From: Rathayibacter agropyri
Lineage (GTDB): Bacteria; Actinomycetota; Actinomycetes; Actinomycetales; Microbacteriaceae
Direction: 5' to 3'
Assembly (NCBI RefSeq): GCF_013249015.1
Contig: NZ_JABRPL010000007.1
Location: forward strand, 17,537-65,117
DNA: 47,581 nt
The notes beneath the pieces are model-generated. The model made no database searches. It was not told the DNA's origin and saw nothing but the letters and a program-made list of their open reading frames with translations. Made by a program: the position numbers and the translations under genes. Positions 2,819 to 28,053 of the stretch are shown here, one piece after another; positions within the stretch are counted from its first letter, which is position 1; every line of letters begins with the position of its first letter.

Positions 2819-2843
2819 CGCAACCCCTCGGCGTCGTTCATCA

Positions 2844-2857
2844 GAGGCATCTCGCGG
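2844..2857. repeat. half copy of CGCGAGATG repeat
   Basis: The 14-mer GAGGCATCTCGCGG is identical to the right arm of the inverted repeat at 1179-1207. It lies between the convergent ends of the hydrolase and the LysR gene. No matching left arm is seen nearby. Confidence 0.65.
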
Positions 2858-2866
2858 GGGACCGTG

Positions 2867-3757
2867 TCAGGCGTGGCTGGCCGCCACTTCGGCCAGGCAC
2901 TCGCGGAAGACGCGGACGGCGGGCGAGGCCCGGCCGGCCTCGCGCTGCGCGGTGAAGATCGTGCGGCGCGGAGTGCCCGGCAGGTCGAGGAGGCGGCAGT
3001 CGGGCTCGGCGCCCGCCCACACCAGGTCAGGCATCAGCGCGACCGCGTGGCCCGAGGCGACGAGGCGGATCTGCGCCTGGAGGTCGGCGGTCTCGAAGCG
3101 GACGTCGGGCTCGAAGCCCGCGACGCGGCAGGTCTGCTCGGCGAAGTGCCGGCTAGCCGTGCCGCGCGGCTCCATCACCCAGGCGCAGTCACGGGCCGAG
3201 GCGAGGTCGAGCACAGCGGAGTCGCGGCTCACCGCGAGACGGATCGCGTCGGTCGTGAGGTCGCTGCGCACCAGACCCGGGAGCCACGACGTGGAGTGCC
3301 CGGGGTACTGCTCGGCGACGACCAGGTCGAACGCCCGCGCCCACGACGTCTCGTGCAGCGCCCCGTCCGGCTCGCGCTGCACCATCTCGACGCGGACGTC
3401 GGGAAAGCGCTGGCCGACCGCGCGCAGCGCCCCCGGCATCAGCGCGAGGGCCGCCGATTGAAACACCGCCACGCGCACCCTGCCCGTTACCGACTCGCCC
3501 GACGCGGCGAGCGCCGCCTCCGCTCGCTCGAGCAGGGCCAGCACCTCGCCCGCTGCCTCGACCAGGATCTCGGCCTGCGGCGTCAGCTGCACCCGCCGCC
3601 CGGACTTGCGCAGTAGCTCGACGCCGGTCTCGCGTTCGAGCACCGCGAGCTGCTGCGAGACGGCGGAGGGACTGTAGGCGAGCGCCTCGGCGGCGGCGGC
3701 CAGGGTCCCGCGGATGGCGACCTCGCGCAGGAGGACCAGGCGGCGGACATCGAGCAC
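2867..3757 (-). CDS. LysR-family regulator, probably of putA
   Basis: The 296-residue protein has an N-terminal winged helix-turn-helix (LREVAIRGTLAAAAEALAYSPSAVSQQLAVLER, described here in part: LAYSPSAVSQQL) and a type-2 periplasmic-binding-like effector domain from about residue 90. That is the LysR plan and length. It is divergent from putA with about 117 bp between start codons. This is the classic position for a LysR protein that activates its neighbour, so a proline- or P5C-responsive activator of putA is likely. The sequence does not show the effector. Confidence 0.9.
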   Translation of the reverse strand: MLDVRRLVLLREVAIRGTLAAAAEALAYSPSAVSQQLAVLERETGVELLRKSGRRVQLTPQAEILVEAAGEVLALLERAEAALAASGESVTGRVRVAVFQSAALALMPGALRAVGQRFPDVRVEMVQREPDGALHETSWARAFDLVVAEQYPGHSTSWLPGLVRSDLTTDAIRLAVSRDSAVLDLASARDCAWVMEPRGTASRHFAEQTCRVAGFEPDVRFETADLQAQIRLVASGHAVALMPDLVWAGAEPDCRLLDLPGTPRRTIFTAQREAGRASPAVRVFRECLAEVAASHA

Positions 3758-3874
3758 GGCGGACCTCCGATTGTTCAGCTGAGCTGACCGGTATCGGTAA
3801 GGAACGGTCGCTTCTGCTCAACGGTACTCGGTCGAATACTGAGGGGAACGACCCTCAGAGCAGAAGGACCGCAC
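3758..3874. promoter_or_regulatory. LysR-putA divergent regulatory region
   Basis: This 117-bp region must hold both promoters. An inverted repeat with arms CTTCTGCTC (3811-3819) and GAGCAGAAG (3858-3866) spans most of it, and its right arm contains the putA ribosome-binding site (AGAAGGA). A smaller hairpin GAGGG/CCCTC (3841-3856) sits inside the larger one. The palindromic TTCAGCTGAGCTGA near 3775 could be a LysR site. The roles are inferred from position only. Confidence 0.4.
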
Positions 3875-6800
3875 ATGACGGATCTCGCCAGCCCCGCTCT
3901 CGCCACCGGCGGCCCCTCTCCCGACTCCGTCGACCCGCGCCTGGTCGAGGAGAGTGTGGCGCTCGTGCGCCGCTGGCTACATGAGGCGTCGGCGATCCCC
4001 ATTGACGCCTCCGGGGCGCAGTTGGCCGGCGTGCTGAAGGACCCGGCGGGCCTGGACTTCACCGTCGGGTTTGTGGACGGCGTCGTCCGCCCCGAGGACA
4101 CCCGCGTGGCCGCCGCCGCGCTGCGCTCGATCGCGGGCGGCGTGCCGACGTTCCTTCCCGGGCCGATGCGCGGTGCGGTCGCTCTCGGCGGGGTGATGGC
4201 GCCCCTCCTCCCGAACATCGTGGTGCCGATCGCGCGTCGAGTGCTGCGGCGAATGGTCGGCCACCTCATCATCGACGCGACGGACTCGCGCCTGGGGCCG
4301 GCGATCGCCGCGATCCGCCGCGACGGGGTCCGACTCAACATGAACCTGCTCGGGGAGGCGGTGCTTGGCCGCGCGGAGGCGCAGCGCCGGCTCGAGGGGA
4401 CGCACCGCCTCCTCGCCCGCGACGACGTGGAGTACGTCTCGATCAAGGTCTCCTCCAGCGTCGCCCCGCACAACCCGTGGGCGTTCGACGCCGCGGTCGA
4501 CGACATCGTCGAGGAGTTGGCGCCGCTGTTCGCACGCGCCGCCGCCTCCTCGCCGCAGAAGTTCATCAATCTCGATATGGAGGAGTACAAAGACCTCGAC
4601 CTCACCATCGCGGTCTTCACCCGGATCCTCGACCGGCCGGAGTTCGCCGACCTCGAGGCCGGCATCGTCCTCCAGGCCTACCTGCCAGACGCTCTCTCGG
4701 CGATGATCCGCCTCCAAGAGTGGAGCGCGGCCCGTCGCGCTCGCGGCGGGGCGGGCATCAAGGTCCGGCTGGTCAAGGGCGCGAACCTGCCGATGGAGCA
4801 GGTCGAAGCCTCCGTGCATGGCTGGCCACTGGCCACCTGGAGCACGAAGCAGGACTCGGACACCAACTACAAGCGCGTCATCGACTACGCGCTGCACCCC
4901 GAGCGGATCCGGAACGTGCGGGTCGGCGTCGCGGGGCACAACCTTTTCGACGTCGCCTACTCGTGGCTGCTCGCGGGTGCGCGCGGGGTCCGTGACGGGA
5001 TGGAGTACGAGATGCTGCTCGGCATGGCGCAGGGCCAGGCGGAGGCGGTGCGCCGCACGGTCGGCTCGCTCCTGCTCTACACGCCTGTCGTCGCGCCGGC
5101 CGAGTTCGATGTGGCAATCGCCTATCTGATCCGCCGGCTGGAGGAGGGCGCGTCGAGCCAGAACTTCATGTCGGCCGTCTTCGAGCTCGAGGCCAATCCG
5201 GCGCTGTTCGCCCGCGAGGAGGAGCGGTTCCGCGCCTCCGTCACCGCCCTCGACGGCGCCGTGCCTCCGGCCCACCGCGTGCCTGACCGCTTTGCCGCCT
5301 CCGGTCGCCCCGGCTTCGGCGAGTTCCGCAGCACCCCGGACACCGACCCGTCGGTGGCCGCGAACCGCGAGTGGGCGCAGGCGATCCTCGCGCGCGTTCC
5401 GGGGTCGCGAGCGGGCGTCGACTCGATCGAGGCGGCCACGATCGGCACCCGCGACGAGCTGGAGCAGGCCCTCGCGATCACCCGTGCCAGCGGCTGGAAC
5501 GACGTCCCGGCCGACGAGCGCGCGCGCATCCTGCACCGCGCGGGTGACGAGTTGGAAGCCCGCCGCGCCGAGCTCCTCGAGGTGATGGCGGCCGAGGGCG
5601 GCAAGACCCTCGACCAGAGCGACCCCGAGGTCTCGGAGGCGATCGACTTCGCGCACTACTACGCCGAGCGGGCCCGAGAGCTCGACACGATCGACGGCGC
5701 GCGCTTCCACCCGGCCGCGCTGACCCTGGTCACTCCGCCGTGGAACTTCCCGGTGGCGATCCCGGCCGGCGGCGTCCTCGCGGCACTGGCCGCCGGCTCC
5801 GCGGTGGTCCTCAAACCCGCAGGTCCGACCGCGCGCTGCGGAGCCGTCGTGGCCGAGGCGCTGTGGGCGGCGGGTGTGCCCCGTGAGTCGCTGCGGCTGC
5901 TCCGCCTGCCCGAGGAGGAGCTGGGCCGCGACCTGATCGCGTCCTCCGCGGTCGACCGCGTCATTCTCACGGGGGCCTATGAGACGGCGGAACTGTTCCG
6001 CTCGTTCCGCCACGACCTGCCGCTACTCGCCGAGACGAGTGGCAAGAACGCGATCATCGTGACCCCTTCGGCCGACCTCGACCTCGCGGTGAAGGACGTG
6101 GTCGCGAGCGCCTTTGGGCACGCCGGCCAGAAGTGCTCGGCCGCCTCGCTCGTGGTGCTGGTCGGCTCCGTCGCCCGCTCGAAGCGGTTCCGCGCGCAAC
6201 TGCTCGACGCGGTCGCCTCGCTGACGGTCGGCTACCCGAGCGACCCCGCGTCGCGGATGGGACCCGTGATCGAGCCCGCCGGCGGGAAGTTGCTGCGCGG
6301 GCTGACGGTACTCGGCGCCGGCGAGACGTGGCTGCTGGAGCCGCGTCGGCTCGACGACTCCGGCCGGCTGTGGAGTCCGGGTGTCCGCGACGGCGTGCGG
6401 CGCGGCTCCGATTTCCACCGCACCGAGTACTTCGGGCCGATCCTCGGGATCATGACCGCGCCGACCCTTGGCGAGGCGATCGCTGTGGTCAATGAGGTCG
6501 ACTACGGCCTCACGTCGGGACTGCACGCACTCGATCCTGCCGAGATCGGTACGTGGCTAGAGGGGATCCAGGCCGGCAATCTCTATGTGAACCGAGGGAT
6601 CACCGGCGCGATCGTGCAGCGGCAGCCGTTCGGCGGCTGGAAGAAGTCGGCCGTGGGCCCGGGTACCAAGGCGGGCGGGCCCGACTACCTGCTCGGGCTC
6701 GGCTCGTGGAGCCCGGTTCCGGCTATGGCGACCGCACCGGTCGCGCCGGCGGCCTCGCGGCTGGTCGCAGCGGCACTGGCCGAGCTGTCGGCCCAGGAGT

Positions 6801-7330
6801 CGGCCGGTGTTGAGCGCACCGCGCGCAGTTGCGCGGCCGCGTGGGCCGAGCACATCGGCGGCGCCCGCGACGTCACGGGGCTGGAGGCGGAGCGCAACGT
6901 GTTCCGGCACCGGCCCTACGACTCCGCAGTGCTGGTGCGCCTCGCCGCCGGGGAGCCGTGGGGTTCGCTCGTGCGCGTGGCCATCGCGGCGGCGACCGCG
7001 CAGGCGCGCGTGGTGCTCTCGAGTGCGTCGGCGCTACCTCCGCAACTCGCCGGGGCGCTCGGCGCGACGGCGACGACGGTCGTCGTGGAGGACGACACCG
7101 CCTGGGAGGCCCGGGTGCGCGCCCACGGGGCCGGCCGGATTCGGCTGCTGGGCGCCGAGGCCGCCTCCGTCACTGCCGCGACCGGCGGACGCCCCGACCT
7201 CGCGGTCTACGCCGGCGAGGCGACCGAAGCGGGCCGCCTGGAGCTGCTGCCGTTCGTGCGCGAGCAGGCCGTTTCGATCACGGCCCACCGCTTCGGCACG
7301 CCCGGCCACCTCACGGACGCCCTGCTCTGA
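3875..7330 (+). CDS. putA: bifunctional proline dehydrogenase / P5C dehydrogenase
   Basis: The 1151-residue protein oxidises proline to glutamate in two steps. Residues about 40-470 form the FAD-dependent proline dehydrogenase barrel (YVSIKVSS, FINLDMEEYKD, KVRLVKGANLP, GVAGHNLFDVAY, RRLEEGASSQNF). Residues about 500-960 form the NAD-dependent aldehyde dehydrogenase (TPPWNFPVAIPAGG, catalytic Cys754 in GQKCSAAS, FGGWKKSAVGPGTKAGG). A further C-terminal region of about 190 residues resembles the degenerate ALDH-like tail of long PutA proteins. There is no N-terminal DNA-binding domain, so it is not self-regulating like E. coli PutA. The divergent LysR gene fits regulation. Confidence 0.95.
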   Translation: MTDLASPALATGGPSPDSVDPRLVEESVALVRRWLHEASAIPIDASGAQLAGVLKDPAGLDFTVGFVDGVVRPEDTRVAAAALRSIAGGVPTFLPGPMRGAVALGGVMAPLLPNIVVPIARRVLRRMVGHLIIDATDSRLGPAIAAIRRDGVRLNMNLLGEAVLGRAEAQRRLEGTHRLLARDDVEYVSIKVSSSVAPHNPWAFDAAVDDIVEELAPLFARAAASSPQKFINLDMEEYKDLDLTIAVFTRILDRPEFADLEAGIVLQAYLPDALSAMIRLQEWSAARRARGGAGIKVRLVKGANLPMEQVEASVHGWPLATWSTKQDSDTNYKRVIDYALHPERIRNVRVGVAGHNLFDVAYSWLLAGARGVRDGMEYEMLLGMAQGQAEAVRRTVGSLLLYTPVVAPAEFDVAIAYLIRRLEEGASSQNFMSAVFELEANPALFAREEERFRASVTALDGAVPPAHRVPDRFAASGRPGFGEFRSTPDTDPSVAANREWAQAILARVPGSRAGVDSIEAATIGTRDELEQALAITRASGWNDVPADERARILHRAGDELEARRAELLEVMAAEGGKTLDQSDPEVSEAIDFAHYYAERARELDTIDGARFHPAALTLVTPPWNFPVAIPAGGVLAALAAGSAVVLKPAGPTARCGAVVAEALWAAGVPRESLRLLRLPEEELGRDLIASSAVDRVILTGAYETAELFRSFRHDLPLLAETSGKNAIIVTPSADLDLAVKDVVASAFGHAGQKCSAASLVVLVGSVARSKRFRAQLLDAVASLTVGYPSDPASRMGPVIEPAGGKLLRGLTVLGAGETWLLEPRRLDDSGRLWSPGVRDGVRRGSDFHRTEYFGPILGIMTAPTLGEAIAVVNEVDYGLTSGLHALDPAEIGTWLEGIQAGNLYVNRGITGAIVQRQPFGGWKKSAVGPGTKAGGPDYLLGLGSWSPVPAMATAPVAPAASRLVAAALAELSAQESAGVERTARSCAAAWAEHIGGARDVTGLEAERNVFRHRPYDSAVLVRLAAGEPWGSLVRVAIAAATAQARVVLSSASALPPQLAGALGATATTVVVEDDTAWEARVRAHGAGRIRLLGAEAASVTAATGGRPDLAVYAGEATEAGRLELLPFVREQAVSITAHRFGTPGHLTDALL

Positions 7331-7430
7331 GCCCCGCGAGAGGGGAGTGGGGAGGGGCCGGCACGGGGTGTCGTCCGTGTATGGGAAAAGGGCGACGCTG
7401 TGATAACACGGCGTGTTCTTCACTGGAGGC
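7331..7430 (+). promoter_or_regulatory. putative vanH promoter region
   Basis: This short region separates putA from vanH. It holds a 13-bp palindrome AACACGGCGTGTT (7405-7417) directly before the vanH start and a weak -10-like GATAAC at 7402-7407. A VanR-controlled promoter is expected here from the gene order, but I cannot identify a VanR box with confidence. Confidence 0.3.
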
Positions 7431-8420
7431 ATGTTCGACACGATTCACGCCGCGCCTCTCGTCGCCTTCTTCGGCTGCGATCCTGAGGAAGCGCGCGCGG
7501 TCACGGAGGCGGCACGGCGGCGGTCCCTGCGCTGCCTGGTCGAGCAGGTCGCGCTCAGCCCTGAGAGCGCCGCGCTCGCTGTCGGGATTCCCCGCGTCAG
7601 CGTCAACCACCTGACGCCGGTCACCGGAGAGACGCTGCACGCCCTCGCCGCGAACGGAGTGCGCACCGTCCTGACCCGGAGCATCGGCCTCGATCACGTC
7701 GATCTCGACGTCGCCGCAGAACTTGGCATCTCGGTCGCGAACATCGACTACGAACCCGACGGCGTCGCCGATCACACCGTGATGCTGATCCTCCTGGCCC
7801 TGCGAAACGCCGGAGCCACTCTCGCCGCGGTCGCCCGGCACGACTTCCGCGCCCCGGCAGCGCGCGGACGCGAGCTACGCAGCGTGACCGTGGGCGTGCT
7901 CGGCGGCGGACGCATCGGCCGAGCGGTCGCGGAGCGCCTACGCGCCTTCGGCTGCCGGATCCTGATGGTCAGCGGCTCCGGTGCCGATCTCCAGGGCGTC
8001 GAGCGGGTCCCACTCGCGCAGGCCCTGGCCGAGAGCGACGTCATCACTCTGCACCTCCCTCTGACCGACGGCACCCGCCACTGCATCTCGGCCGAGGGGA
8101 TCGCCCGCATGCGCCCCGGCGCGCTCCTGGTCAACACCGGGCGCGGCGGGCTGGTCGACACCGATGCGCTGGTTGACGCCCTCGAAGACGGTCGACTCGG
8201 CGGCGCCGCCCTGGATGTCCTCGAGGGCGAGGAGGGCTGCTTCTCCGTCGACCTGTCCGCTGGGCCGATCCCCCATCGCTCACTGGAGCGCCTGGTCGCG
8301 ATGCCGAACGTCATCATCACCCCGCACCTCGCCTACTTCACCACCCGCACCCTCCACCAGATCATCGAGGCGACGCTCTCGCGCTGCGTGGACCTCGAGA
8401 GGACGACCACCCATGTCTAA
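7431..8420 (+). CDS. vanH: D-lactate dehydrogenase VanH
   Basis: The 329-residue NAD-dependent D-2-hydroxyacid dehydrogenase reduces pyruvate to D-lactate, the substrate that the next gene product joins to D-alanine. Recognisable features are TRSIGLDHVDL, the Rossmann motif GVLGGGRIGRAV, and the stretches VNTGRGGLVDT, GGAALDVLEGEEG and MPNVIITPHLAYFT, which closely match enterococcal VanH as I remember it. The start is uncertain. ATG 7431 gives the family length, but its GGAGG is only 1 nt away; GTG 7413 is an in-frame alternative. The gene ends 8 bp inside vanA, so the two are translationally coupled. Confidence 0.95.
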   Translation: MFDTIHAAPLVAFFGCDPEEARAVTEAARRRSLRCLVEQVALSPESAALAVGIPRVSVNHLTPVTGETLHALAANGVRTVLTRSIGLDHVDLDVAAELGISVANIDYEPDGVADHTVMLILLALRNAGATLAAVARHDFRAPAARGRELRSVTVGVLGGGRIGRAVAERLRAFGCRILMVSGSGADLQGVERVPLAQALAESDVITLHLPLTDGTRHCISAEGIARMRPGALLVNTGRGGLVDTDALVDALEDGRLGGAALDVLEGEEGCFSVDLSAGPIPHRSLERLVAMPNVIITPHLAYFTTRTLHQIIEATLSRCVDLERTTTHV

Positions 8421-9444
8421 AACGACCATTGCCATCCTGTTCGGCGGCTGCTCAGAGGAGCACGACGTCTCTATCAAGTCCGCGCTCGAGATCGCCGCGG
8501 CCCTCGATCCTGAGGCGTACGACGCGCTGTGGATCGGGATCACGCGCTCCGGCGAGTGGCGGCTCTGCGAGCGTCCGAGCCTCGACTGGGAGTCGTTGCC
8601 CGGCCGGGCCGCCGTGATCTCGCCGGATCGCTCGACGCACGGCCTCCTGGTCGAGGACGCCGGCACGTTCCGGCGCGTCCCGGTCGACGTCGTCCTGCCC
8701 GTCCTGCACGGCACGGGAGGCGAGGACGGCTCCATCCAGGGTCTCCTCGAACTCTCCGGTCTCCCCTACGTCGGCTGCGACATCCAGGGCTCGGTCGTGT
8801 GCATGGACAAGTCGCTCGCCTACACCGTCGCTGCGCAGGCCGGGATCTCCGTGCCGGCATTCACCGTCGTGCATCCGGGCGACACGGTCGACGCGAGCCT
8901 TCTGGCGTACCCCGTCTTCGTGAAGCCGGCGCGCTCGGGCTCCTCGTTCGGAGTCACGAAGGTCGAGTCCCCCGACGGACTCGAGGACGCGATCGCCCTC
9001 GCCAACCGCTACGACCAGAAGGTGCTGATCGAGGAGCAGGTACTCGGCTCGGAGGTCGGCTGCGCGGTCCTCGGCGACGGAGCGGACCTCGTCGTCGGCG
9101 AGGTCGACCGGATCCGCCTGCAGCACGGGCTCTTCCGCATCCACCAGGAGGCGGAGCCGGAGAAGGGCTCGACCAACTCCTCGATCACCGTCCCGGCCGA
9201 TCTCCCCGAGGCGCAGCGGGCGTCGATCCAGGAGCGGGCGAAGGCCCTTTACCGGGCGCTCGGCTGCCGGGGACTGGCCCGCGTCGACATGTTCCTGCTC
9301 GACGACGGCCGGATCGTGCTCAACGAGGTCAACACCCTGCCCGGGTTCACCTCCTACAGCCGGTACCCGCGGATGATGGCCGCCGCCGGTCTCAGCGTCG
9401 CCGACCTGGTCGACCGCAGTGTCCAGCTGGCGGTGAGCCGATGA
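8413..9444 (+). CDS. vanA: D-alanine--(R)-lactate ligase VanA
   Basis: The 343-residue ATP-grasp ligase has the same length as enterococcal VanA. It makes D-Ala-D-Lac, which replaces D-Ala-D-Ala at the end of the peptidoglycan precursor and lowers vancomycin binding. It shows ILFGGCSEEHDVS, HGTGGEDGSIQG, FVKPARSGSSFGV, FRIHQEAEPEKGS and NEVNTLPGFTSYSRYP. The His in FRIHQE is residue 244 by codon count. That is the position that gives VanA its preference for lactate over D-Ala, so a housekeeping Ddl or a D-Ser ligase is unlikely. It overlaps vanH upstream and vanX downstream (ATGA). Confidence 0.96.
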   Translation: MSKTTIAILFGGCSEEHDVSIKSALEIAAALDPEAYDALWIGITRSGEWRLCERPSLDWESLPGRAAVISPDRSTHGLLVEDAGTFRRVPVDVVLPVLHGTGGEDGSIQGLLELSGLPYVGCDIQGSVVCMDKSLAYTVAAQAGISVPAFTVVHPGDTVDASLLAYPVFVKPARSGSSFGVTKVESPDGLEDAIALANRYDQKVLIEEQVLGSEVGCAVLGDGADLVVGEVDRIRLQHGLFRIHQEAEPEKGSTNSSITVPADLPEAQRASIQERAKALYRALGCRGLARVDMFLLDDGRIVLNEVNTLPGFTSYSRYPRMMAAAGLSVADLVDRSVQLAVSR

Positions 9445-10049
9445 GCCCGGGCTTCGTCTACCTCGATGAGGCTGCCGAGGACATCCACTGGGACGCGAAG
9501 TATGCGACTTCGGACAACTTCACCGGCGGCCCCGTCGACGGGTACGCGGCCAACCGGATCGTGACGGCCGCAGCCGTGGCAGCCGCACTGCGCGTCGCAC
9601 AGGCCCGGGCCTCCGAGCGCGGGCTGGGGCTCCTCGTCTGGGACGCCTACCGCCCGCAGCGTGCCGTCGACCACTTCGTCCGCTGGGCGCGGGAACCGGA
9701 GTGCCCGCGCGTGAAGAGCATCTTCCATCCGAGGATCAGCCGGGCGGCGATGTTCGAGCAGGGCTACATCGCCTGCTCCTCCGGGCACACCCGCGGCGGC
9801 TCTCTCGACCTGACGCTCGTTGACTCGGCGAGCAGACGCCTGCTCGACATGGGTGGTCGGCACGACCTGATGGACGTCACCTCGCATCACGGGGCGGAGG
9901 GAGTCGCTCCCTCCGCGGCCGCGAACAGGCGGATCCTGTGCGACATCATGATCGACAGCGGTTTCCGTCCGTATCCGCAGGAGTGGTGGCACTACACGCT
10001 CGAGCGGGAGCCGTTCCCCGATCGCTACTTCGACTTCCCGATCGAGTGA
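9441..10049 (+). CDS. vanX: D-Ala-D-Ala dipeptidase VanX
   Basis: The 202-residue zinc dipeptidase destroys D-Ala-D-Ala so that only the depsipeptide is used for the cell wall. The zinc ligands and catalytic base fall exactly on the standard VanX numbering: His116 and Asp123 in SSGHTRGGSLDLTL, Glu181 and His184 in EWWHY. The start WDAKYATSDNFTGGPVDGY and the end YFDFPIE also match VanX. There is no signal peptide, as expected for a cytoplasmic enzyme. The start codon overlaps the vanA stop as ATGA. Confidence 0.96.
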   Translation: MSPGFVYLDEAAEDIHWDAKYATSDNFTGGPVDGYAANRIVTAAAVAAALRVAQARASERGLGLLVWDAYRPQRAVDHFVRWAREPECPRVKSIFHPRISRAAMFEQGYIACSSGHTRGGSLDLTLVDSASRRLLDMGGRHDLMDVTSHHGAEGVAPSAAANRRILCDIMIDSGFRPYPQEWWHYTLEREPFPDRYFDFPIE

Positions 10050-10055
10050 TGACCT

Positions 10056-10181
10056 GTGTGTGGTGCTGACCTGCTCGGGGCGGACCTCGGCGCCGACATG
10101 CTTGGTGCCAACCCGCTCGGTGCACCCAGGACGCGACAGCCCAGGCACGGGGTGCGCCCCAGCTGCCCGGGCGACGCGTAG
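10056..10181 (+). CDS. possible 41-aa mini-ORF with pentapeptide-like repeats
   Basis: Between vanX and vanR a GTG-started ORF encodes 41 residues. Residues 3-23 read as near-perfect pentads (GADLL-GADLG-ADMLG-ANPLG), like the A(D/N)LxG repeat of pentapeptide-repeat proteins. The remaining 18 residues are Arg/Pro-rich and unrelated. There is no good ribosome-binding site. It could be a real small protein coupled to vanX, a relic of a longer gene, or chance in GC-rich sequence. The repeat pattern is visible; any function is unknown. Confidence 0.25.
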   Translation: MCGADLLGADLGADMLGANPLGAPRTRQPRHGVRPSCPGDA

Positions 10182-10199
10182 GCGGAATACAGTTCACGG

Positions 10200-10886
10200 A
10201 TGCGGGTCCTGATCGTCGAAGACGAGCCGTACCTCTCCCGCTCCATCGGCGACGGGCTCCGGCTGGAGGCGATCGCCTCCGACATCGCCGCGGACGGCCA
10301 CCAGGCGCTCGCCCTGCTCGAAGTCACCGCGTACGACGTCGCGATCCTCGACCGTGACGTCCCCGGCCCGACCGGGGACGATGTCGCCCGTGCCATCGTC
10401 GCCTCCGGCTCAGGGACCCCGATCATCATGCTGACCGCGGCCGACCGCCTCCTCGACAAGGAGAGCGGCTTCGAGATCGGCGCCGACGACTACCTGACGA
10501 AGCCCTTCGACCTCCGCGAACTCGTCCTCCGAGTGCGCGCCCTCGCCAGGCGCCGCACGCAGGCCCGCCCCCCGGTGTACGACAGGGACGGCCTGCGGAT
10601 CGACCCGTTCCGTCGCGAGGTCTTCCTCGACGGGCGCTTCGTCGCTCTCACCCGCAAGCAGTTCGCCGTACTCCACGTCCTCGCCGAAGCCGACGGCGGA
10701 GTGGTCAGCGCGGAGGAACTGCTTGAGCGCGCCTGGGACGAGAACGCCGATCCGTTCACCAACGCGATCAGGATCACGATCTCCGGTCTACGCAAGCGGC
10801 TCCCGGACGCCACGCTGATCGCGACGGTGCCCGGTTCGGGATACCGCATCGCCCCGCGCGCACCCTCCGCCGCCGGCCAGGCCTGA
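10200..10886 (+). CDS. vanR: response regulator VanR
   Basis: The 228-residue OmpR/PhoB-type regulator has a receiver domain (residues 1-115; phosphoacceptor Asp51 in ILDRDVPGPTG, conserved Lys in YLTKPF) and a C-terminal winged helix (LTRKQFAVLHVL, SAEELLERAWDENADPFTNAIRITISGLRKRL). The sequence resembles Streptomyces coelicolor VanR closely as I recall it, much more than enterococcal VanR. It should activate vanHAX in response to VanS. It has its own upstream gap (10050-10199), so it may be transcribed separately. vanS follows 4 bp after its stop. Confidence 0.94.
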   Translation: MRVLIVEDEPYLSRSIGDGLRLEAIASDIAADGHQALALLEVTAYDVAILDRDVPGPTGDDVARAIVASGSGTPIIMLTAADRLLDKESGFEIGADDYLTKPFDLRELVLRVRALARRRTQARPPVYDRDGLRIDPFRREVFLDGRFVALTRKQFAVLHVLAEADGGVVSAEELLERAWDENADPFTNAIRITISGLRKRLPDATLIATVPGSGYRIAPRAPSAAGQA

Positions 10887-10890
10887 CGGG

Positions 10891-12018
10891 ATGACCACCG
10901 ATTCCCCCCGGCTCGCGCGCTGGGTCAGCATCCAAACCCGCCTCACACTCAGCTACGTGCTGCTGGTCGGGCTGGCGGTCACCGGGCTCCTGGGCGCCAT
11001 GTCGCTCTTTCTCCTGCGATACATCACGGACGAGTACTTCGTCGCGTACTCGCAGAAGACTGACGAGCAGATCTTCGTCCCCAACCGCACGGAACTGCTG
11101 AGGGCCTTCGTGCCGGTCGCCGTGGGAGTGATCGTGGTCCTCCTGCTCGCCGGGACGGTCGGAGGGTGGCTCCTAGCCAAGCGGATACTCGCTCCGCTGG
11201 ACGAACTCACCCGGGTGACCCGACTGGTCGCCTCCGACGGCTACTCCCACCGGGTTGTCAGCCGAGATTCGCGGGACGAATTCCAGGAACTCTCGGACGC
11301 GTTCAACGCCATGCTCGAGAAGATCGAGGCGCACGTCGGCGAGCAGGAGCGGTTCGCCGCGAACGCCTCGCACGAACTGCGGACACCGCTGGCGATCTCG
11401 AAGACGATCCTCGACGTCGCCCGGCAGGACAGCGATCCGGACATCGATGAGGTGCTCGCGAACCTCTCCGCCGTCACGACCCGCGCGATCGACCTCGTCG
11501 AGGCGCTCCTCCTGCTGAGCCGCGCCGAGCGGCCCGCGATCGAGAAGGCGCGCGTCGACCTGTCGCTCCTCGCCGAGGAGGCCCGCGACACCGTTCTGAC
11601 GCTCGCCGAGCGCGGCGGAATCACTCTCCAGCTCCACGCCGAATCGTGCTTCGCGGTCGGATCGACGTCGCTGCTGCTCCAGCTGCTGACGAACCTGCTC
11701 CACAACGCGATCGTGCACAACGTCCCGTCCGGCTTCGTCCTGCTGACGACGCAGAGGAGTCCGGAGGGCGCGGTCATCACGATCGAGAACAGCGGCGCGG
11801 TGCTGGAGACGTCGATCCTGCCGAGCTTGCTCGAGCCGTTCGAGCGGGGCGGGAACCGGGCGCGCCGGACGGACGGCGGACACGTCGGAGCGGGCCTCGG
11901 CCTGACGATTGTGGCCCGCATCGTCGCCGCGCATCGCGGCCGCCTCGCGCTGGCAGCCCGCGACGGGGGCGGCCTCCTCGTGACGGTCACCCTCCCCCAG
12001 CGCCCCTCCCTCAGGTAG
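10891..12018 (+). CDS. vanS: sensor histidine kinase VanS
   Basis: The 375-residue membrane kinase has two transmembrane segments (about 18-42 and 70-96) flanking a short extracellular loop of about 28 residues. A HAMP linker (KRILAPLDELTRVT) follows, then the H-box NASHELRTPLA with His161, an N-box (LLTNLLHNAIVHN) and the G-box (GAGLGLTIVARIVAAH). The short sensor loop and overall sequence match the Streptomyces VanS type, which senses glycopeptide directly. In the absence of drug VanS acts as a VanR phosphatase. It is the last gene of the van locus; a repeat element follows. Confidence 0.94.
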   Translation: MTTDSPRLARWVSIQTRLTLSYVLLVGLAVTGLLGAMSLFLLRYITDEYFVAYSQKTDEQIFVPNRTELLRAFVPVAVGVIVVLLLAGTVGGWLLAKRILAPLDELTRVTRLVASDGYSHRVVSRDSRDEFQELSDAFNAMLEKIEAHVGEQERFAANASHELRTPLAISKTILDVARQDSDPDIDEVLANLSAVTTRAIDLVEALLLLSRAERPAIEKARVDLSLLAEEARDTVLTLAERGGITLQLHAESCFAVGSTSLLLQLLTNLLHNAIVHNVPSGFVLLTTQRSPEGAVITIENSGAVLETSILPSLLEPFERGGNRARRTDGGHVGAGLGLTIVARIVAAHRGRLALAARDGGGLLVTVTLPQRPSLR

Positions 12019-12037
12019 CCCCGCCCTCTCTCCCCTT

Positions 12038-12098
12038 CGCGAGATCCAGTTGGGTACACGTTCATCGGCGTGTCGCGTACTCGACCGGCCTCTCGCGG
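12038..12098. repeat. CGCGAGAT...TCTCGCGG intergenic repeat
   Basis: The element begins CGCGAGATCC and ends CCTCTCGCGG, with an internal GTGTCGCG. The element at 14741-14803 has the same ends, the same internal GTGTCGCG and nearly the same length. It lies between the convergent 3' ends of vanS and prpD. Confidence 0.6.
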
Positions 12099-12122
12099 CG
12101 GGGAGGTGGGGGGTGGGTGGGG

Positions 12123-13646
12123 TTAGAAGAGGCCGCGGGGGGTGGCGACGGAGGCGAGGACGCCGGGGGCCGCGGTCACGGTGAGGTGGGCGACCTCGGC
12201 CGGGGTCAGCTCGGGCAGGCGCTGCGCGAGGTCGAGGAAGCGCTCGATCTCGGAATCCTCGAGGACGTCGGCCGCGAGGGTGCGGAACTTCGCGACGTAC
12301 TGCTCGCGGGTGAACGGGTGCGCGCCGAGCGGATGCGCATCCGCCACCGCGATCTCGTCGATGATCGTCGTGCCGTCGGTCAGCACAATCTCGACGCGGG
12401 CGCCGAACGCCTTGTCGGCCGGGTCCGTCGAGTGGTAGCGGCGCGTCCACTCCGCGTCCTCGAGCGTGCTCACCCGGTGCCACAGCGCGATGGTGTCGGC
12501 TCGGGCGGCGCGCTCGGGGGCATAGCTGCGAACGTGATGCCAGGCGCCGTCCTGCAGCGCGACCGTGAAGATGTAGGGCACGGAGTGGTCGAGCGTCTCG
12601 CGGGAGGCGGTCGGGTCGTACTTCTGCGGATCGTTCGCGCCCGAGCCGATCACCGTGTGCGTGTGGTGCGAGGTGTGCAGGACGATCCGGTCGACGCGCT
12701 CCGGGTCGGTGGCCTCAGGATGCGCGTGGTGGAGGCGGCGGGCGAGGTCGATCAGCGCCTGCGCCTGATACTCGGCCGAGTGCTCCTTCGTGTAGGTGTC
12801 GAGGATGGCGCGCTTGGCCTCGCCGCGATCGGGCAGCGGAACATTGTAGTTCGCGTCGCTCCCGTCGAGCAGCCAGGCGATGACGCCGTCCTCCCCCTCG
12901 TAGATCGGCGACGGGCTGGTCTCGCCGCGCATCGCCCGGTCGACCGCCTCGATTGCCATCTTGCCGGCGAACGCGGGGGCGTAGGCCTTCCAGCTTGAGA
13001 TCTCGCCCTTGCGCGACTGCCGCGTGGCGGTCGTCGTGTGCAGCGCCTGCGCGATCGCCTGCTCCGTCGTTGCCACGTCGAGGCCGAGCAGCGTCCCGAT
13101 GCCGGCGGCCACAGAGGGGCCGAGGTGCGCGACATGGTCGATCTTGTGCCGGTGCAGGCTGATCGCGCGCACGAGGTCGACCTGCACCTCGTAGCCGGTG
13201 ACGATTCCCCGCACCAGCTGGGCACCCGAAACTCCGGTGTGTTGGGCGACGGCGATCAGGGGTGGGATATTGTCCCCCGGATGCGAGTATTCCGCCGCGA
13301 GAAACGTGTCGTGGTAGTCGAGCTCGCGCACGGCGACTCCGTTGGCCCACGCGGCCCACTCAGGTGAAACACGACGTGCAGCGTCGACGCCGAGCACGGC
13401 TGAGCCCTGCCCGCCGATGGAAGCGGGGTGGGCGAGCGCTTGCGAGCGGGCGGCGACGACGGGGCGGCGGAGCAGGGAGGCGGTGGCCACCGCGGCGTTG
13501 TCTATCACCCGATTGACCACCATCTCGGTGACCTCGCCGTCGATCTCCACCGGATCGGCGGCGACCTCGGCAAGCGCATGGGCGAGCTGGCCGTGGCGCG
13601 GGAGTTCCTCCTCGCTGCGGTGGACGCGGACGTGGTGTTCGTGCAC
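12123..13646 (-). CDS. prpD: 2-methylcitrate dehydratase, PrpD/MmgE family
   Basis: The 507-residue protein has the MmgE/PrpD fold. Recognisable blocks include [17 protein letters not shown] near residue 45, [25 protein letters not shown] near residue 110 (read as two blocks: [14 protein letters not shown] and SHPGDNIPP), and [20 protein letters not shown] near residue 205. The family dehydrates 2-methylcitrate in the methylcitrate cycle that uses propionyl-CoA. The usual partners prpB and prpC are not in this window, so here the gene stands alone. The start at 13646 is an upstream candidate; the conserved region begins near residue 15. Confidence 0.92.
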
Positions 13647-13690
13647 GGGTGGCTCCTTCGGCTCTCCTCCCAGGCTATCCCCGGCCTTCG

Positions 13691-13774
13691 CCGCGAAATG
13701 TCGCGAGAGGTGGCCGTCCGGACGAGATGCACCGCCGGGGCATGCGATCTCGTCCGGATCAGGGCATCTCGCGA
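13691..13774. repeat. CCGCGAAATGTCGCGAGA-type repeat
   Basis: The left end CCGCGAAATGTCGCGAGA (13691-13708) is identical to the left end of the element at 24352-24464. The right end is CATCTCGCGAA. An inner inverted repeat pairs GGACGAGAT with ATCTCGTCC. It fills the divergent gap between prpD and the Ppx/GppA gene. Confidence 0.7.
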
Positions 13775-13798
13775 AGGGCGCGCGGGCAGAATGGCGGG

Positions 13799-14710
13799 AT
13801 GGCCTCTCCCACGCGCGTCGCGGCGTTCGACTGCGGCACCAATTCCCTCCGTCTGCTGATCGCCGATGTGGCGGACGGGAGGGTGGTCGACGTGCTGCGG
13901 CGCACCGAGCTCGTGCGCCTGGGCCGCGGCGTCGACCGCACCGGCCGCTTCGATCCGGTCGCGCTCCAGCGAACCCTCGCCGTCACTCGCGACTACGCGG
14001 CCGCCGCACGCGAGGCGGGCGCCGAGCGCCTCCGCTTCGTCGCGACCTCGGCCACCCGCGACGCCGCAGACCGCGATGACTTTCTCGCTGCCGTCCAGCG
14101 GATCCTCGGGGTCGCACCCGAGACGATCACGGGTGACGAGGAAGCGCGCCTGTCGTTCCGCGGCGCCGTCTCGGCCGTCGATCCCGAGCGCCCCGTCCTG
14201 GTCGTCGACCTCGGCGGGGGCTCGACTGAACTGGTCCTCGGCGGCGCGGAACCGGAACAGGCGCACTCCATGAACGTCGGCAGCGTCCGCCTCACCGAGC
14301 GCCATCGCCGAGCCGCCGCCCCCACCGATGACGAGCGCGCCGCAATCCGGGCCGACATCTGCGAGGCGCTGGACGCCTCCCCCGTCGACCTGTCCCGCGC
14401 GCGGAGCGTCGTCGGCGTCGCCGCCACGGTGCTGACGATCACCGCGCACGTTCTGCGCAGCACCGACCGCACGGCGCTCGAGGCGACCCTCCCGCTCGCC
14501 GACGTCGTCGCCGCCTGCGACGAGCTCGCCGCCCTCGCGCCGGCCGAGATCGCTGCGCTGCCGTGGGTCCGCGCCGGACGCGAGGATGTGCTGGCGGCCG
14601 GCGCCCTCATCTGGGGCGAGGTCCTCCGCGCGGTGCAGGAGGCGTCCCCCGCCGTCACCGAGGTCGGCTCGACCGTGCACGACCTCCTCGACGGCCTGGC
14701 CCTGGCGTGA
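13799..14710 (+). CDS. Ppx/GppA-family phosphatase
   Basis: The 303-residue protein belongs to the exopolyphosphatase / pppGpp phosphatase family of the actin-like ATPase fold. Motifs visible are [18 protein letters not shown] (phosphate 1), [10 protein letters not shown], the [14 protein letters not shown] block, and [14 protein letters not shown] (phosphate 2). Length matches the short actinobacterial Ppx form. It should hydrolyse polyphosphate or pppGpp in the cytoplasm; sequence alone does not decide between them. I chose ATG 13799 because the conserved [11 protein letters not shown] starts six residues later. Confidence 0.9.
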
Positions 14711-14740
14711 CCCCGTCGTCCCCGCCCGCCCCTCCCCTCT

Positions 14741-14803
14741 CCGCGAGATGCCTCGTGAGTACGGCTCTCCCGGAGTGTCGCGTTTCCAAGAGACGTCTCG
14801 CGG
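14741..14803. repeat. CGCGAGATG-family repeat
   Basis: The left end CCGCGAGATGCCTC equals the left arm of the repeat at 1179-1192, and the right end is GTCTCGCGG. An internal GTGTCGCG matches the element at 12038-12098. It lies in the gap after the Ppx/GppA gene. Confidence 0.65.
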
Positions 14804-14848
14804 ATGGGGAGACGGGAGGGCGGGTGGGGCGGCGGGTAGCGTTGAGGG

Positions 14849-15166
14849 ATGGCAGGTGCAGGGGAGATCAGGACTGTTCAGCTTCGGCGTTATGAGTTGG
14901 AGGACGGGGTGATGGACGACTTCCTCGCGTGGTTCTCGGCGCGGATCGTGCCTGCCCGTGAGGCGCACGGATTTCGGGTCGAGTTCGCCTACGCCGACCG
15001 CGAGGTGAACGAATTCATCTGGGCCGTCAGTACGCCTGGCGATGCGGAGTCGTTCGCTGCGGTCGAGCAGGTGTACCTCGCGTCACCGGAACGCGACGCC
15101 GCGTTCTCGGGCGAGCCGAAACGCGTCGCGGTGCAGCACGTCCGACTGATCGACCGGATCGTCTGA
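14849..15166 (+). CDS. NIPSNAP-like small protein
   Basis: The 105-residue soluble protein reads as a dimeric alpha/beta-barrel (ferredoxin-like) domain of the NIPSNAP type. It begins with RTVQLRRYELEDGVMDDFLAWF, seen in shorter pieces as IRTVQLRRYELEDG and DFLAWFSARIVP, followed by FIWAVSTPGDAESF and a C-terminal VQHVRLIDRIV strand. Proteins of this family are often uncharacterised. No catalytic residues can be assigned and no operon partner is obvious. Confidence 0.75.
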   Translation: MAGAGEIRTVQLRRYELEDGVMDDFLAWFSARIVPAREAHGFRVEFAYADREVNEFIWAVSTPGDAESFAAVEQVYLASPERDAAFSGEPKRVAVQHVRLIDRIV

Positions 15167-15187
15167 CCAAGGCCTCGACCCGCGGCG

Positions 15188-15787
15188 TTAGCTCCGCGCG
15201 CGATGCCCCGCCGTCAGCAGGGCGCGCACGGCGAGACAAACCGCGGCGATCGAGCCGACGGTACCGAGCAGGCGTGGCCAGACGTGCTTCGGAGTGTCGA
15301 GCCCCGCACGGTCCTGTGCGGAAGGGACCGCGGCCGGCGCCAACGTACGTCCGGCGGCCCCTGCCTCGGCCATGTGCGCGAGTCGTCGCAGGGTTTCGAT
15401 GTTGCGCAGCCAGAGAACGGCATGCAGTAGCGGCTTAGGGACGAGGGTGCCTGGCCCCTTCACCGCGGCCTCGTGGATCCGCACCCTCGCGCCTCGCGGG
15501 TGCGGCTCGACCTCAAGACGCACCCGCGCCTCGCCCATCGGCCAGCCTGCCGCCTGGATGATCATGCGCCGCGGCGGATCCCACTCGAGCACCGTAGTGC
15601 GGTCGTCGATCACCAGCGGCCAGAGCCCGAACGAATGGTGCAGTTGCGCACCCACGTGCGGGAAGTCGGCATCGACCCGGCGCATCCGCGAGGCACCGAC
15701 GACCCAGCCCGGAAACAGCCATCCGGAGGCGAGCACCGCGAAGACGGACTCAGGCGGGCAGTGGAAGACGCGAGTGTTGCGGGACAT
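15188..15787 (-). CDS. SRPBCC-family protein with C-terminal hydrophobic segment
   Basis: The 199-residue protein has a START/Bet v1-like (SRPBCC) domain over residues 1-140, with the typical opening VFHCPPESVFAVLASGWLFPGWV and HPRGARVRIHEAAVKGPG (both given in part). A hydrophobic stretch near residues 170-190 (LLGTVGSIAAVCLAVRALL) could anchor it in the membrane. SRPBCC domains bind hydrophobic ligands. It is the last gene of an apparent operon with the FAD oxidoreductase and SDR upstream, so it may bind or carry a lipid or isoprenoid handled by those enzymes (inference). ATG 15787 was chosen over an Arg-rich upstream extension. Confidence 0.8.
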   Translation of the reverse strand: MSRNTRVFHCPPESVFAVLASGWLFPGWVVGASRMRRVDADFPHVGAQLHHSFGLWPLVIDDRTTVLEWDPPRRMIIQAAGWPMGEARVRLEVEPHPRGARVRIHEAAVKGPGTLVPKPLLHAVLWLRNIETLRRLAHMAEAGAAGRTLAPAAVPSAQDRAGLDTPKHVWPRLLGTVGSIAAVCLAVRALLTAGHRARS

Positions 15788-15869
15788 CGCAGGCTCTTTC
15801 AGGTCGAGTGGCGGCAGGTGACGGCGGCGACGCCTCCACACTGCCAGAAGGCGAGGGTGATGGAGTGGC

Positions 15870-17327
15870 TCACACCGGGGGCGTATCCGGTGACAGATCG
15901 GGCGCGTCGCGCACCCCGAATTCGTGCCGGAGGGCGCTGCGGGCGGCGTGCCAGCCGGCCATCCCGTGCACGCCAGGGCCCGGCGGAGTGGACGACGAAC
16001 AGAGGTAGAGGCCCTTCGCGGGAGTCCGCCACGGATCCCTCGTGGGCACGGGTCGCGCGAGAAGCTGCACCACGCTGGCCGCGCCGGCCGCGATATCGCC
16101 GCCGAGATAATTGGGGTTGTAGGCCTGCATATCCCGCGCTGTCATCGAGGAGGCAGCGAGAATGCGGTCGCGGAAGCCGGGCGCAAAGCGCTCGATCTGG
16201 CGGGTGATCGCCTCGCGCTGGTCGGCGGGAGAATGCCGTGGAACGTGCGTATAGGCCCAGAGGACGTGCTTGCCCTCTGGCGCGCGTCCCGGGTCGGCGA
16301 TCGACGGCTGCGCGACGAGGACGTACGGACTGCGGCTGTGCCGGCCCCGGACCACGTCGCGTTCGGCCGCGGCGATCTCGGCCCGCGTTCCTCCGACATG
16401 CAGGGTCCCGGCGTGGGCCAACTCGGGATTCGTCCACGGCACCGGCCCGTCGAGCGCGAAGTCGACTTTCGCCACGGCATTGCCGTAGCGGAACCGCTGA
16501 AGCGCAGCCACGTAAGCGGTGGGGAGACGCTCGCCGGCCAGCGCGAGGAGCGCGGTAGGCGTGCCGTCGATGAGCACCGCACGGGCGGGAGGAAGCTCTG
16601 CGAGCGAGGTGACCTCGACGCCCGTCTCGATACGGCCGCCGTGCGCGCGCAGATCGTCGGCGAGCGCGTCGACGATGGCCTGGCTCCCTCCGATCGGCAC
16701 CGGCCAGCCACGGGCGTGCGCGTAGGCACCGAGCGCGAGTGCCGCCGCGGCGGTCGACGGGCTGGGCATCGGCCGGATCGAGTGCGCTGCCAGTCCGGAG
16801 AACATCGCGGGGGCCACGTCACCGGCGAAGCGGAGGTTCCACACCGGGGTGCCCTGTTCGAGCACGCGCAGGCCGAACCGCACCAGCACGCCGGGATCGG
16901 TGGGGATCCGTAGCAGCGCATCGTTCGTGAAGCCGGCCACACGGTCGGCCCGCTCGGCCAGCGGACCCATCAGTGCCCGCCACGCGGGACCGTCGCGGCC
17001 GAGCCGCTCGACGGTCCGCTCGAGGTCCCGGTAGGCGATCCCCGCCCGGCCGGCATCGAGCGGATGCGCGTATGAGATCTCGGGGACGACCAGCTCGATG
17101 CGCCGATCCAGCGCGAACGCGCGGAAGAACCCGGAGGCCAGCGCCATCGGGTGCACGGCCGAGCAGACGTCGTGGTGGAAGCCGGGCAGCGTCAACTCGG
17201 CCGTGCGCGCACCGCCGCCGATCGTCTCGTTTCGCTCGAGGACCACGACCGAGAGTCCAGCCCGCGCGAGCGTGACGGCGGCCGCGAGCCCGTTGGGGCC
17301 CGCGCCGATGACGACCGCGTCGACCAT
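15870..17327 (-). CDS. CrtI-like NAD(P)/FAD-dependent oxidoreductase
   Basis: The 485-residue flavoprotein begins with the dinucleotide-binding motif [20 protein letters not shown] and continues [18 protein letters not shown]. The C-terminal FAD signature reads [20 protein letters not shown]. This is the layout of the phytoene desaturase / amine oxidase superfamily. The substrate is unknown; no other carotenoid gene is in the window. I chose ATG 17327 because GGAGG lies 5 nt upstream, inside the end of the SDR gene. The two genes are only 2 bp apart and probably co-translated. Confidence 0.87.
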
Positions 17328-17329
17328 GC

Positions 17330-18325: not shown

Positions 18326-18595
18326 GCGCGAGCCCCGCGGAGAGCGGTGGCGGTGCGATGGTTCTGCGTCATGGGGCGGGCTCCTTTGTGAGGGCGCGGG
18401 ATGCGTCGAGAATTCCACGGTAGGCGGCAGCGCAGCGCAGCGCGCGGGGTTGCGCGATGTGTGGAGAGGTCGCCGGATCCGCGCCTGGGGAGGAGCATCG
18501 CACGGAGCGCCTCCAGGCTTCCTCCAGAGATACGCGCCAGAATGACGCCAGCCCGACGATCTCCAAACCGGGACGACCTCCGACCGGATCGAAGC

Positions 18596-27730: not shown

Positions 27731-28053
27731 ATGCGGTCGGTCAGCGTCCCCGCACTTCGAGCGTCTCGGGCGATGTCCACGTCATGAACCGCGCCCGCCG
27801 CAACGTCAGCTGAGACGCCCCCTCATCCACCATGACGTCTGAACCCTCGTCTCAGCTGACGCCGCGTCGCGTCCTGTCTTCGCTCCTGCGCCCCACTAAA
27901 GGAAGTTGGAGCCCGGTGGCACGTCCGTTGGAACGCTCCACAACACTCCGCCGGATCCGCCGCGGGATGATCCGCCGCTCCAGTGGACCGTCCTCGTCCC
28001 GGTGGGACCAGCCTCGGCGTCCGTACTCGTCGCGGACAATCGTGCGCCGGAGC
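27731..28053. repeat. 323-bp direct repeat, copy 1
   Basis: This segment matches 29931-30253 at a constant offset of 2,200 bp, with only two differences that I can find (27779 and 27898) and no indels. Weaker similarity continues upstream to about 27705. It contains the last 67 codons of the hypothetical gene 30052-31152 plus its downstream hairpin (arms 27804-27817 and 27848-27861). Identity stops sharply after 28053. Confidence 0.92.

What the first reader, a model, noticed from the sequence alone, without database searches (positions are those of the whole stretch)
7431..12018. Complete vanH-vanA-vanX with vanR-vanS in an apparently non-producing actinobacterium
All five core genes of high-level glycopeptide resistance are intact, overlapping and with canonical catalytic residues (ligase His244; VanX His116, Asp123, Glu181, His184; VanR Asp51; VanS His161). 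Codon and base use look like the neighbours, so the locus is probably old in this lineage. No glycopeptide biosynthesis genes are nearby. VanR and VanS resemble the Streptomyces type. This makes a candidate environmental resistance reservoir.
Basis: partly seen in the sequence, partly recalled or inferred. Interest (0 to 1): 0.75.

Follow-up and report, generated by a model that had tools for sequence, protein, structure and literature searches.

The report
Rewired vancomycin-resistance cluster in Rathayibacter
A bacterium related to the wheat-associated Rathayibacter iranicus carries a complete, apparently selected set of vancomycin-resistance genes of a known kind, but with the control genes turned round and, it seems, cut off from their usual self-control switch.

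Summary
vanH (7431-8420), a D-Ala-D-Lac ligase (8413-9444), vanX (9441-10049), vanR (10200-10886) and vanS (10891-12018) are intact, co-directional and keep every residue named. The host is a Rathayibacter near R. iranicus (about 92% DNA identity). The cluster sits between putA and prpD here and in two other species; in 7 of 15 Rathayibacter genomes those genes adjoin without van genes. dN/dS of 0.035-0.305 indicates selection. In kind it is a known non-producer vanHAX-vanRS cluster; Rathayibacter ligases were noticed in print in 2024.

Two things I did not find in print. (1) vanRS lies downstream on the same strand only in Rathayibacter (2 of 52 census loci, plus the window); 49 of 52 have it on the opposite strand. 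(2) An operator-like 20-mer precedes vanH in 41 of 43 and vanR in 42 of 44 other loci. Rathayibacter keeps it at vanH (weakly in one species) and lacks it at vanR, so one switch seems to control the enzymes while vanRS has a basal promoter. It is a candidate for the DNA site of actinobacterial VanR, called unknown in 2021. Resistance, binding and promoter use are inferred.

The parts
3875..7330 (+). putA (proline dehydrogenase / aldehyde dehydrogenase), left flank of the island
   Evidence: Pfam PF01619, PF00171; 18-669 bp from prpD without van genes in 7 of 15 Rathayibacter genomes
7369..7388 (+). operator-like site in front of vanH, candidate VanR site (TGTCGTCCGTGTATGGGAAA), starting 62 bp before the vanH start
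   Evidence: 25.7 bits with a matrix trained without Rathayibacter; best site in the window, next best 8.9; 0 of 5000 shuffles of the 100-bp gap reach it; same offset in R. iranicus and G003
7431..8420 (+). vanH, D-lactate dehydrogenase
   Evidence: NCBIfam vanH_gen 341 bits, below its cut-off of 540; Pfam PF02826/PF00389
8413..9444 (+). VanA-type D-alanine--D-lactate ligase gene
   Evidence: NF000206 570.6 bits, over its cut-off of 550; aligns with 1e4e over 1-341; His244
9441..10049 (+). vanX, D-Ala-D-Ala dipeptidase
   Evidence: NF033115 299.2 bits, cut-off 320; aligns with 1r44 over 2-201; the four named residues kept
10188..10193 (+). TACAGT, -10-like box 12 bp before the vanR start (leaderless vanR promoter, inferred)
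   Evidence: TACGGT at the same place in R. iranicus and G003; a TAnnnT box in 43 of 44 other O-type vanR upstreams, 41 of them at -12 or -13
10200..10886 (+). vanR, OmpR-type response regulator, VanR-O-like
   Evidence: NCBIfam vanR-O 356.7 bits, cut-off 505; among actinobacterial VanR in the tree; Asp51
10891..12018 (+). vanS, sensor histidine kinase, VanS-O-like
   Evidence: NCBIfam HK_VanS_O 286.6 bits, cut-off 720; HAMP, HisKA, HATPase_c; His161
12123..13646 (-). prpD (MmgE/PrpD family), right flank of the island
   Evidence: Pfam PF03972, PF19305; empty-site comparison

Best explanation
This is a chromosomal, vancomycin-inducible D-Ala-D-Lac cell-wall remodelling cluster in a Rathayibacter that probably makes no glycopeptide. 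VanS senses a glycopeptide (inferred) and phosphorylates VanR. VanR binds one operator 62 bp before vanH and switches on vanHAX. VanH makes D-lactate, the ligase joins it to D-Ala, and VanX destroys D-Ala-D-Ala, so precursors end in D-Ala-D-Lac (roles from established knowledge of these families). In 49 of 52 census loci with this kind of regulator, vanRS lies on the other strand, and nearly all vanR upstreams tested carry their own copy of the operator. In Rathayibacter the vanRS pair lies head-to-tail behind vanX, has kept a leaderless -10-like box and lacks the operator. vanRS is therefore expressed at a basal level from its own promoter, perhaps topped up by read-through from vanH. The roughly 4.7-kb block was probably inserted once between putA and prpD in the ancestor of the R. 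iranicus-like clade and kept by selection. Shown by sequence: genes, residues, layout, operator-like site present at vanH and absent at vanR, empty sites, purifying selection. Inferred: resistance, induction, VanR binding, promoter use, direction of change.
For: Families and residues. Host and synteny. Selection: dN/dS of the five van genes 0.035-0.215 against R. iranicus and 0.061-0.305 against G003. Layout census: of 52 loci counted with O-type regulators, 34 opposite-downstream, 15 opposite-upstream, 1 same-upstream, 2 same-downstream, both of the last being Rathayibacter (L172 repeats L073, so 51 distinct places; 5 loci with other regulators left out). Operator: motif learned from 43 vanH and 44 vanR upstreams without Rathayibacter, log-likelihood ratio 659 and 691 against 62 and 64 for shuffled sets; 15 bits or more in 41 of 43 and 42 of 44, and in 29 of 29 and 27 of 29 convergent loci (33 listed, 4 dropped for a missing gene or flank); 99 of 118 sites of at least 22 bits in 1,642,539 bases lie within 260 bp upstream of vanH or vanR. 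Rathayibacter: 25.7, 18.7 and 15.7 bits before vanH, below 0 before vanR in all three with both matrices on both strands. No terminator-like site between vanX and vanR.
Against: VanX, VanH, VanR and VanS fall below the curated NCBIfam cut-offs. Counts of operator sites in other loci use sequences that also trained the matrix. The sites in R. iranicus (18.7) and G003 (15.7) are weak: no shuffle of their own gaps reached them (maximum 9.0 and 13.7), but the best site in whole-window shuffles reached 20.3 in one set of 20 and 18.1 in one of 60 (median 7.2). The simple sigma-70 scan found no promoter-like site anywhere in 7250-12150. dS of the van genes against R. iranicus (0.12-0.23) is below that of the flanks (0.25-0.28), so their histories may not be identical; against G003 they are alike (0.34-0.60 and 0.44-0.45). 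The close relative G015 lacks a VanA-type ligase, so a single gain needs one loss there, unless its fragmented assembly hides the site. No binding, expression or resistance data were available.
Confidence: 0.8

Rival explanations
1. A five-gene operon with positive feedback: vanRS has no working promoter of its own and is transcribed only by read-through from the VanR-controlled vanH promoter.
For: Same strand for all five genes, no terminator-like site between vanX and vanR, the gap folds no better than shuffles (z -0.02), operator-like site only at vanH.
Against: A -10-like box is conserved 12 bp before vanR in three species, near where other O-type vanR genes have theirs; a 150-bp gap is long for a simple operon (inference).
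Confidence: 0.35
2. The cluster is expressed constitutively, or answers a signal other than glycopeptides, and mainly changes the cell wall for another purpose.
For: VanS is the least conserved of the five proteins (90% against R. iranicus, 74% against G003) and its outer loop differs from those of the other VanS proteins aligned.
Against: The named phosphotransfer residues and the vanH operator-like site are kept.
Confidence: 0.12
3. A decaying or silent cluster.
For: G015, a close relative, has no VanA-type ligase.
Against: All five genes are found full length or nearly so in three species and dN/dS is 0.035-0.305.
Confidence: 0.04

Closest known systems
Actinobacterial non-producer vanHAX-vanRS clusters (Streptomyces coelicolor vanSRJKHAX as described in PMC9739842, passages; Agromyces and other Microbacteriaceae loci fetched here)
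   Same: Same five gene families, H-A-X order, VanR-O/Streptomyces-type regulators, operator-like site before vanH.
   Different: vanRS is on the same strand downstream of vanX only in Rathayibacter among the census loci; no operator-like site before vanR; no vanJ or vanK identified among the neighbours scanned; ligase outside the 60-row, mainly actinobacterial clade in the 88-row quick tree.
Enterococcal VanA and VanB clusters
   Same: VanH-ligase-VanX with the D-Lac ligase; ligase 64% and 62% identical; ligase bit scores slightly higher to the 21 non-actinobacterial-type than to the 70 actinobacterial-type ligases compared (medians 455 and 440).
   Different: Regulators of another type: VanR was 36-37% identical in the four Bacillota-type loci where it was found, and the enterococcal VanR did not reach the score threshold; chromosomal site shared by three species; no VanY, VanZ, VanW or transposon genes recognised among the neighbours scanned.
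Rathayibacter toxicus vanHAX cassette (PMC7143919, passages read)
   Same: Same genus; vanHAX genes reported in all isolates.
   Different: Reported there as absent from R. iranicus and about 70% identical in DNA to other organisms; L001 shows that the record of R. iranicus NCPPB 2253 has a vanHAX-RS cluster. The two cassettes were not aligned here.
Rathayibacter spp. [quoted passage not shown]
   Same: Very probably the same ligase lineage (inference; their sequences were not seen).
   Different: The parts read do not describe the Rathayibacter regulators, layout, site or operator.

Membership tests
D-Ala-D-Lac (vanHAX) glycopeptide-resistance cluster | ligase of the D-alanine--(R)-lactate equivalog | tested here: met
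   NF000206 570.6 bits against 550
D-Ala-D-Lac (vanHAX) glycopeptide-resistance cluster | VanX dipeptidase | tested here: inconclusive
   299.2 bits against a cut-off of 320, but alignment with 1r44 over 2-201 and all four named residues kept
D-Ala-D-Lac (vanHAX) glycopeptide-resistance cluster | VanH D-lactate dehydrogenase next to the ligase | tested here: inconclusive
   best model is vanH_gen, 341 bits, under its cut-off of 540; gene overlaps the ligase gene
D-Ala-D-Lac (vanHAX) glycopeptide-resistance cluster | resistance and precursors ending in D-Lac | not testable with these tools
   needs culture and mass spectrometry
Named ligase alleles VanA, VanB, VanD, VanF, VanI, VanM, VanO, VanA-Sc | score over the allele model's cut-off | tested here: not met
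   best of the named alleles VanD 529.3 against 700; VanA 514.9 against 775
VanRS of the VanO/Streptomyces kind | best match and tree position among actinobacterial VanR | tested here: met
   the allele-level vanR-O cut-off (505) is not met (356.7)
VanRS of the VanO/Streptomyces kind | operator-like site before both vanH and vanR (a feature found here, not a published criterion) | tested here: not met
   present at vanH, absent at vanR in 3 of 3 Rathayibacter
Glycopeptide producer self-resistance | glycopeptide NRPS cluster in the genome | tested here: inconclusive
   none among the 35 window proteins scanned; the window's genome is not held; 2 and 5 condensation-domain matches in G001 and G003, not analysed further
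Mobile van element (Tn1546-like) | transposase or integrase beside the genes | tested here: not met
   no such Pfam domain in the 35 proteins scanned, 33 of 40 picked genes plus 2 ORFs; same site in three species

The most novel reading that the evidence does not exclude
The Rathayibacter cluster is a surviving intermediate: its ligase branches off at the stem of the lineage that gave the clinical VanA/VanB clusters, while it still carries the actinobacterial VanR/VanS that the Bacillota later replaced. Its single remaining operator also exposes the general DNA site of actinobacterial VanR, two TATCG-like half-sites 11 bp apart.
Probability: 0.2. Interest if true: 0.7.

Novelty: new variant of a known kind. 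Interest (0 to 1): 0.42.

Why it matters
It would show how a standard antibiotic-sensing circuit can be rewired by turning its control genes round and dropping one operator, in a family where the usual and the changed states can be compared. The operator-like sequence found on the way is a testable answer to a stated gap: the 2021 structure paper on Streptomyces coelicolor VanR says that its DNA sequences are not yet known (PMC8329863, passage read). It also bears on the statement in print that R. iranicus lacks vanHAX (PMC7143919), which L001 contradicts.

Tried and rejected
Clinical source reading: rejected for lack of close identity (64%) and of mobile-element domains in what was scanned.

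Ligase mosaic: the 88-row quick tree puts the Rathayibacter ligase outside a 60-row, mainly actinobacterial clade (SH-aLRT 100). But a 56-row careful tree left the backbone open, its bootstrap had not settled, and a tree holding Rathayibacter with the actinobacteria was 2.38 log units better than the free tree (p-AU 0.53). With every placement on a backbone scored, the best place inside the actinobacteria is 29 log units worse for the ligase (KH 0.047, AU 0.099, SH 0.20) and 8 worse for VanH (AU 0.32). VanX prefers the actinobacteria by 12 over the stem and 17 over the other side (AU 0.13, 0.14). HAX joined: 17 worse inside the actinobacteria, AU 0.31. So the mosaic stays a lean, not a result; it is given as the novel case.

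Remnant in G015: its 62%-identical VanR-like regulator lies by MacB/HlyD-type genes, without vanHAX and without an operator-like site, so it was judged a different system.

Fold of the vanX-vanR gap: no better than shuffles. Promoter and terminator scan: no promoter-like site, one terminator-like site inside vanS. The Ppx query was out of frame by a slip of mine and is not used. The Ddl rows were partly on the wrong strand and were redone. VanH row L037 (84 residues) was dropped before the VanH tree; rows lacking a gene (8 of 56) were dropped from the joined alignment. No structure prediction was run.
Full report
WHAT IS THERE. Five open genes lie head to tail at 7431-12018: vanH, a D-Ala-D-Lac ligase gene, vanX, vanR and vanS. 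The ligase passes the NCBIfam equivalog cut-off for D-alanine--(R)-lactate ligase; the other four match van models best but under curated cut-offs. Their roles in catalysis and phosphotransfer are established knowledge, not tested here.

HOST. The window aligns with that 21-kb locus in four pieces within 2027-19587 at 85-92% DNA identity, 92% across 2867-12008. So it is a Rathayibacter near, but probably not of, that species. No whole genome is held for the window, and statements about the rest of its genome rest on relatives.

SITE AND HISTORY. Of 15 Rathayibacter genomes searched (unnamed apart from G001), 2 have a VanA-type ligase: G001 (R. iranicus, 95%) and G003 (87%). Every other match listed is 45% identical or less, taken as Ddl and other ATP-grasp ligases. 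In both, as in the window, vanHAXRS lies between putA and prpD. In 7 of 15 (G002, G005, G006, G008, G009, G012, G014) putA and prpD are 18-669 bp apart; none of these 7 has a VanA-type ligase. In 3 of 15 (G004, G007, G011) they are 26-31 kb apart around a block that is similar among those three. In 2 of 15 (G010, G013) they are on different contigs or some 720 kb apart. G015 has no prpD match and its putA runs off a contig end. A PutA+PrpD tree groups window+G001 with G003+G015 (100/99); the pattern of van genes needs two changes on it, for instance one gain and one loss in G015. dN/dS of the van genes is 0.035-0.215 against R. iranicus and 0.061-0.305 against G003. dS is 0.12-0.23 (flanks 0.25-0.28) and 0.34-0.60 (flanks 0.44-0.45). 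The genes are therefore under selection and have broadly shared the history of the site, with somewhat lower dS against R. iranicus unexplained.

HOW COMMON. In Microbacteriaceae, 15 of 398 genomes, drawn evenly from a larger group, have a ligase match at E <= 1e-100, G001 and G003 included. In one search, 257 relatives were confirmed and only the best 80 kept, so trees and censuses here see the nearest part of a larger family.

LAYOUT. Among fetched loci with a ligase and an O-type regulator (52 counted, L172 repeating L073; 5 loci with other regulators left out), vanRS is on the opposite strand downstream in 34, opposite upstream in 15, same strand upstream in 1 (L031) and same strand downstream in 2, both Rathayibacter. 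Of the 13 other Microbacteriaceae stretches, those with regulators found have the convergent form, L180 the divergent form, and L171, L176 and L181 showed none. Turning the vanRS block of the convergent form round would give the Rathayibacter form; the direction is inferred.

OPERATOR. A motif search on upstream regions of 43 vanH and 44 vanR genes, Rathayibacter left out, found one strong element, read in opposite directions before the two genes: TATCGtCGGCgTATCGAAAA before vanH and its near complement before vanR (log-likelihood ratios 659 and 691 against 62 and 64 in shuffled sets). It scores 15 bits or more in 41 of 43 and 42 of 44, and in 29 of 29 and 27 of 29 convergent loci that hold both genes. 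These counts are on the training sequences. Of 118 sites of 22 bits or more in 1,642,539 bases of 91 van loci, 99 are within 260 bp upstream of vanH or vanR; the other 19 were not annotated. Its two TATCG half-sites are 11 bp apart, which would fit head-to-tail binding by an OmpR-type regulator (inference). VanR binding is not shown. In the window the vanH gap has a 25.7-bit site at 7369-7388; R. iranicus has 18.7 and G003 15.7, all starting 62 bp before the start codon. None of 5000 shuffles of each gap reached these scores; whole-window shuffles had a best site of 7.2 bits at the median, with 18.1 and 20.3 as the largest seen. The vanR gap has no site in any of the three, with either matrix on either strand. 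A -10-like TACAGT/TACGGT box 12 bp before vanR remains; the sigma-70 pattern scan did not pick it up. I conclude that vanHAX is probably VanR-controlled and that vanRS has a basal, probably leaderless promoter no longer under VanR, with read-through as a rival or an addition.

PHYLOGENY. VanR lies among actinobacterial VanR proteins, far from the four Bacillota-type ones. VanS is deep-branching, and all VanS rows with which it was compared are of its own kind, so that tree cannot place it against other kinds. The enzymes are less clear: the ligase leans to the stem or the non-actinobacterial side, VanX to the actinobacterial side, VanH to neither, and for none is the best rival place rejected at 5% by AU. 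[quoted passage not shown] If that root is right, Rathayibacter joins the two. I keep this as the novel case only.

PRIOR WORK. R. toxicus vanHAX is published, with the statement that R. iranicus has none (PMC7143919, passages); L001 contradicts the second part for strain NCPPB 2253. The actinobacterial survey PMC8698665 (outline, passages and section 2.3) gives van-like genes in 15 of 1741 Micrococcales genomes and names vanHAXRS arrangements. Its Figure 7a and supplement were not seen, so it may already draw this layout. PMC8329863 (passages) says the sequences bound by S. coelicolor VanR are not yet known. I found no published site in searches, which cover open-licence papers only. Searches showed no paper on the layout of the Rathayibacter cluster, judged from the listings and the passages read.

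VERDICT. A real, probably working cluster of a known kind, with a rewired control module as the part not found in print.

Noticed in passing
vanH and vanR upstreams of about 44 fetched loci; other sites listed: An operator-like element precedes vanH and vanR in nearly all fetched loci with O-type regulators, and 19 further strong sites lie elsewhere in the fetched van loci (for example two in L053, Streptomyces toyocaensis), perhaps in front of other van-regulated genes.
   Followed up: partly
putA-prpD gap: L144-L149 (G004, G007, G011): The gap that holds the van island here holds a similar 26-31 kb block in three other Rathayibacter species and under 700 bp in seven, so it is a variable site.
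   Followed up: partly
Rathayibacter genomes; L136 left junction; window about 12038-12100: The palindromic, REP-like 15-mer CGCGAGATGCCACTT has 0 to 173 matches (both strands) per genome, in 13 of 15 Rathayibacter genomes, and sits in the putA-prpD gap of G003 and of the empty site in G009. By eye the window has a decayed copy to the right of vanS, but a search with up to 3 mismatches found none there and 5 elsewhere, within chance.
   Followed up: partly
window 28000-30000: GC drops to 0.565 here against about 0.70 in most of the window, and the three ORFs tried in 27983-31152 have no Pfam match.
   Followed up: no
L003 (MAG labelled Bauldia sp.): A MAG named as an alphaproteobacterium carries vanHAX with actinobacterial-type vanRS; its ligase and VanH are among the closest to Rathayibacter. 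It may be a misbinned contig.
   Followed up: no
L194 4962-5624 (G015): A VanR-O-like regulator (62% to the window's VanR) lies beside MacB/HlyD-type genes without vanHAX: a sister two-component system of unknown signal.
   Followed up: partly
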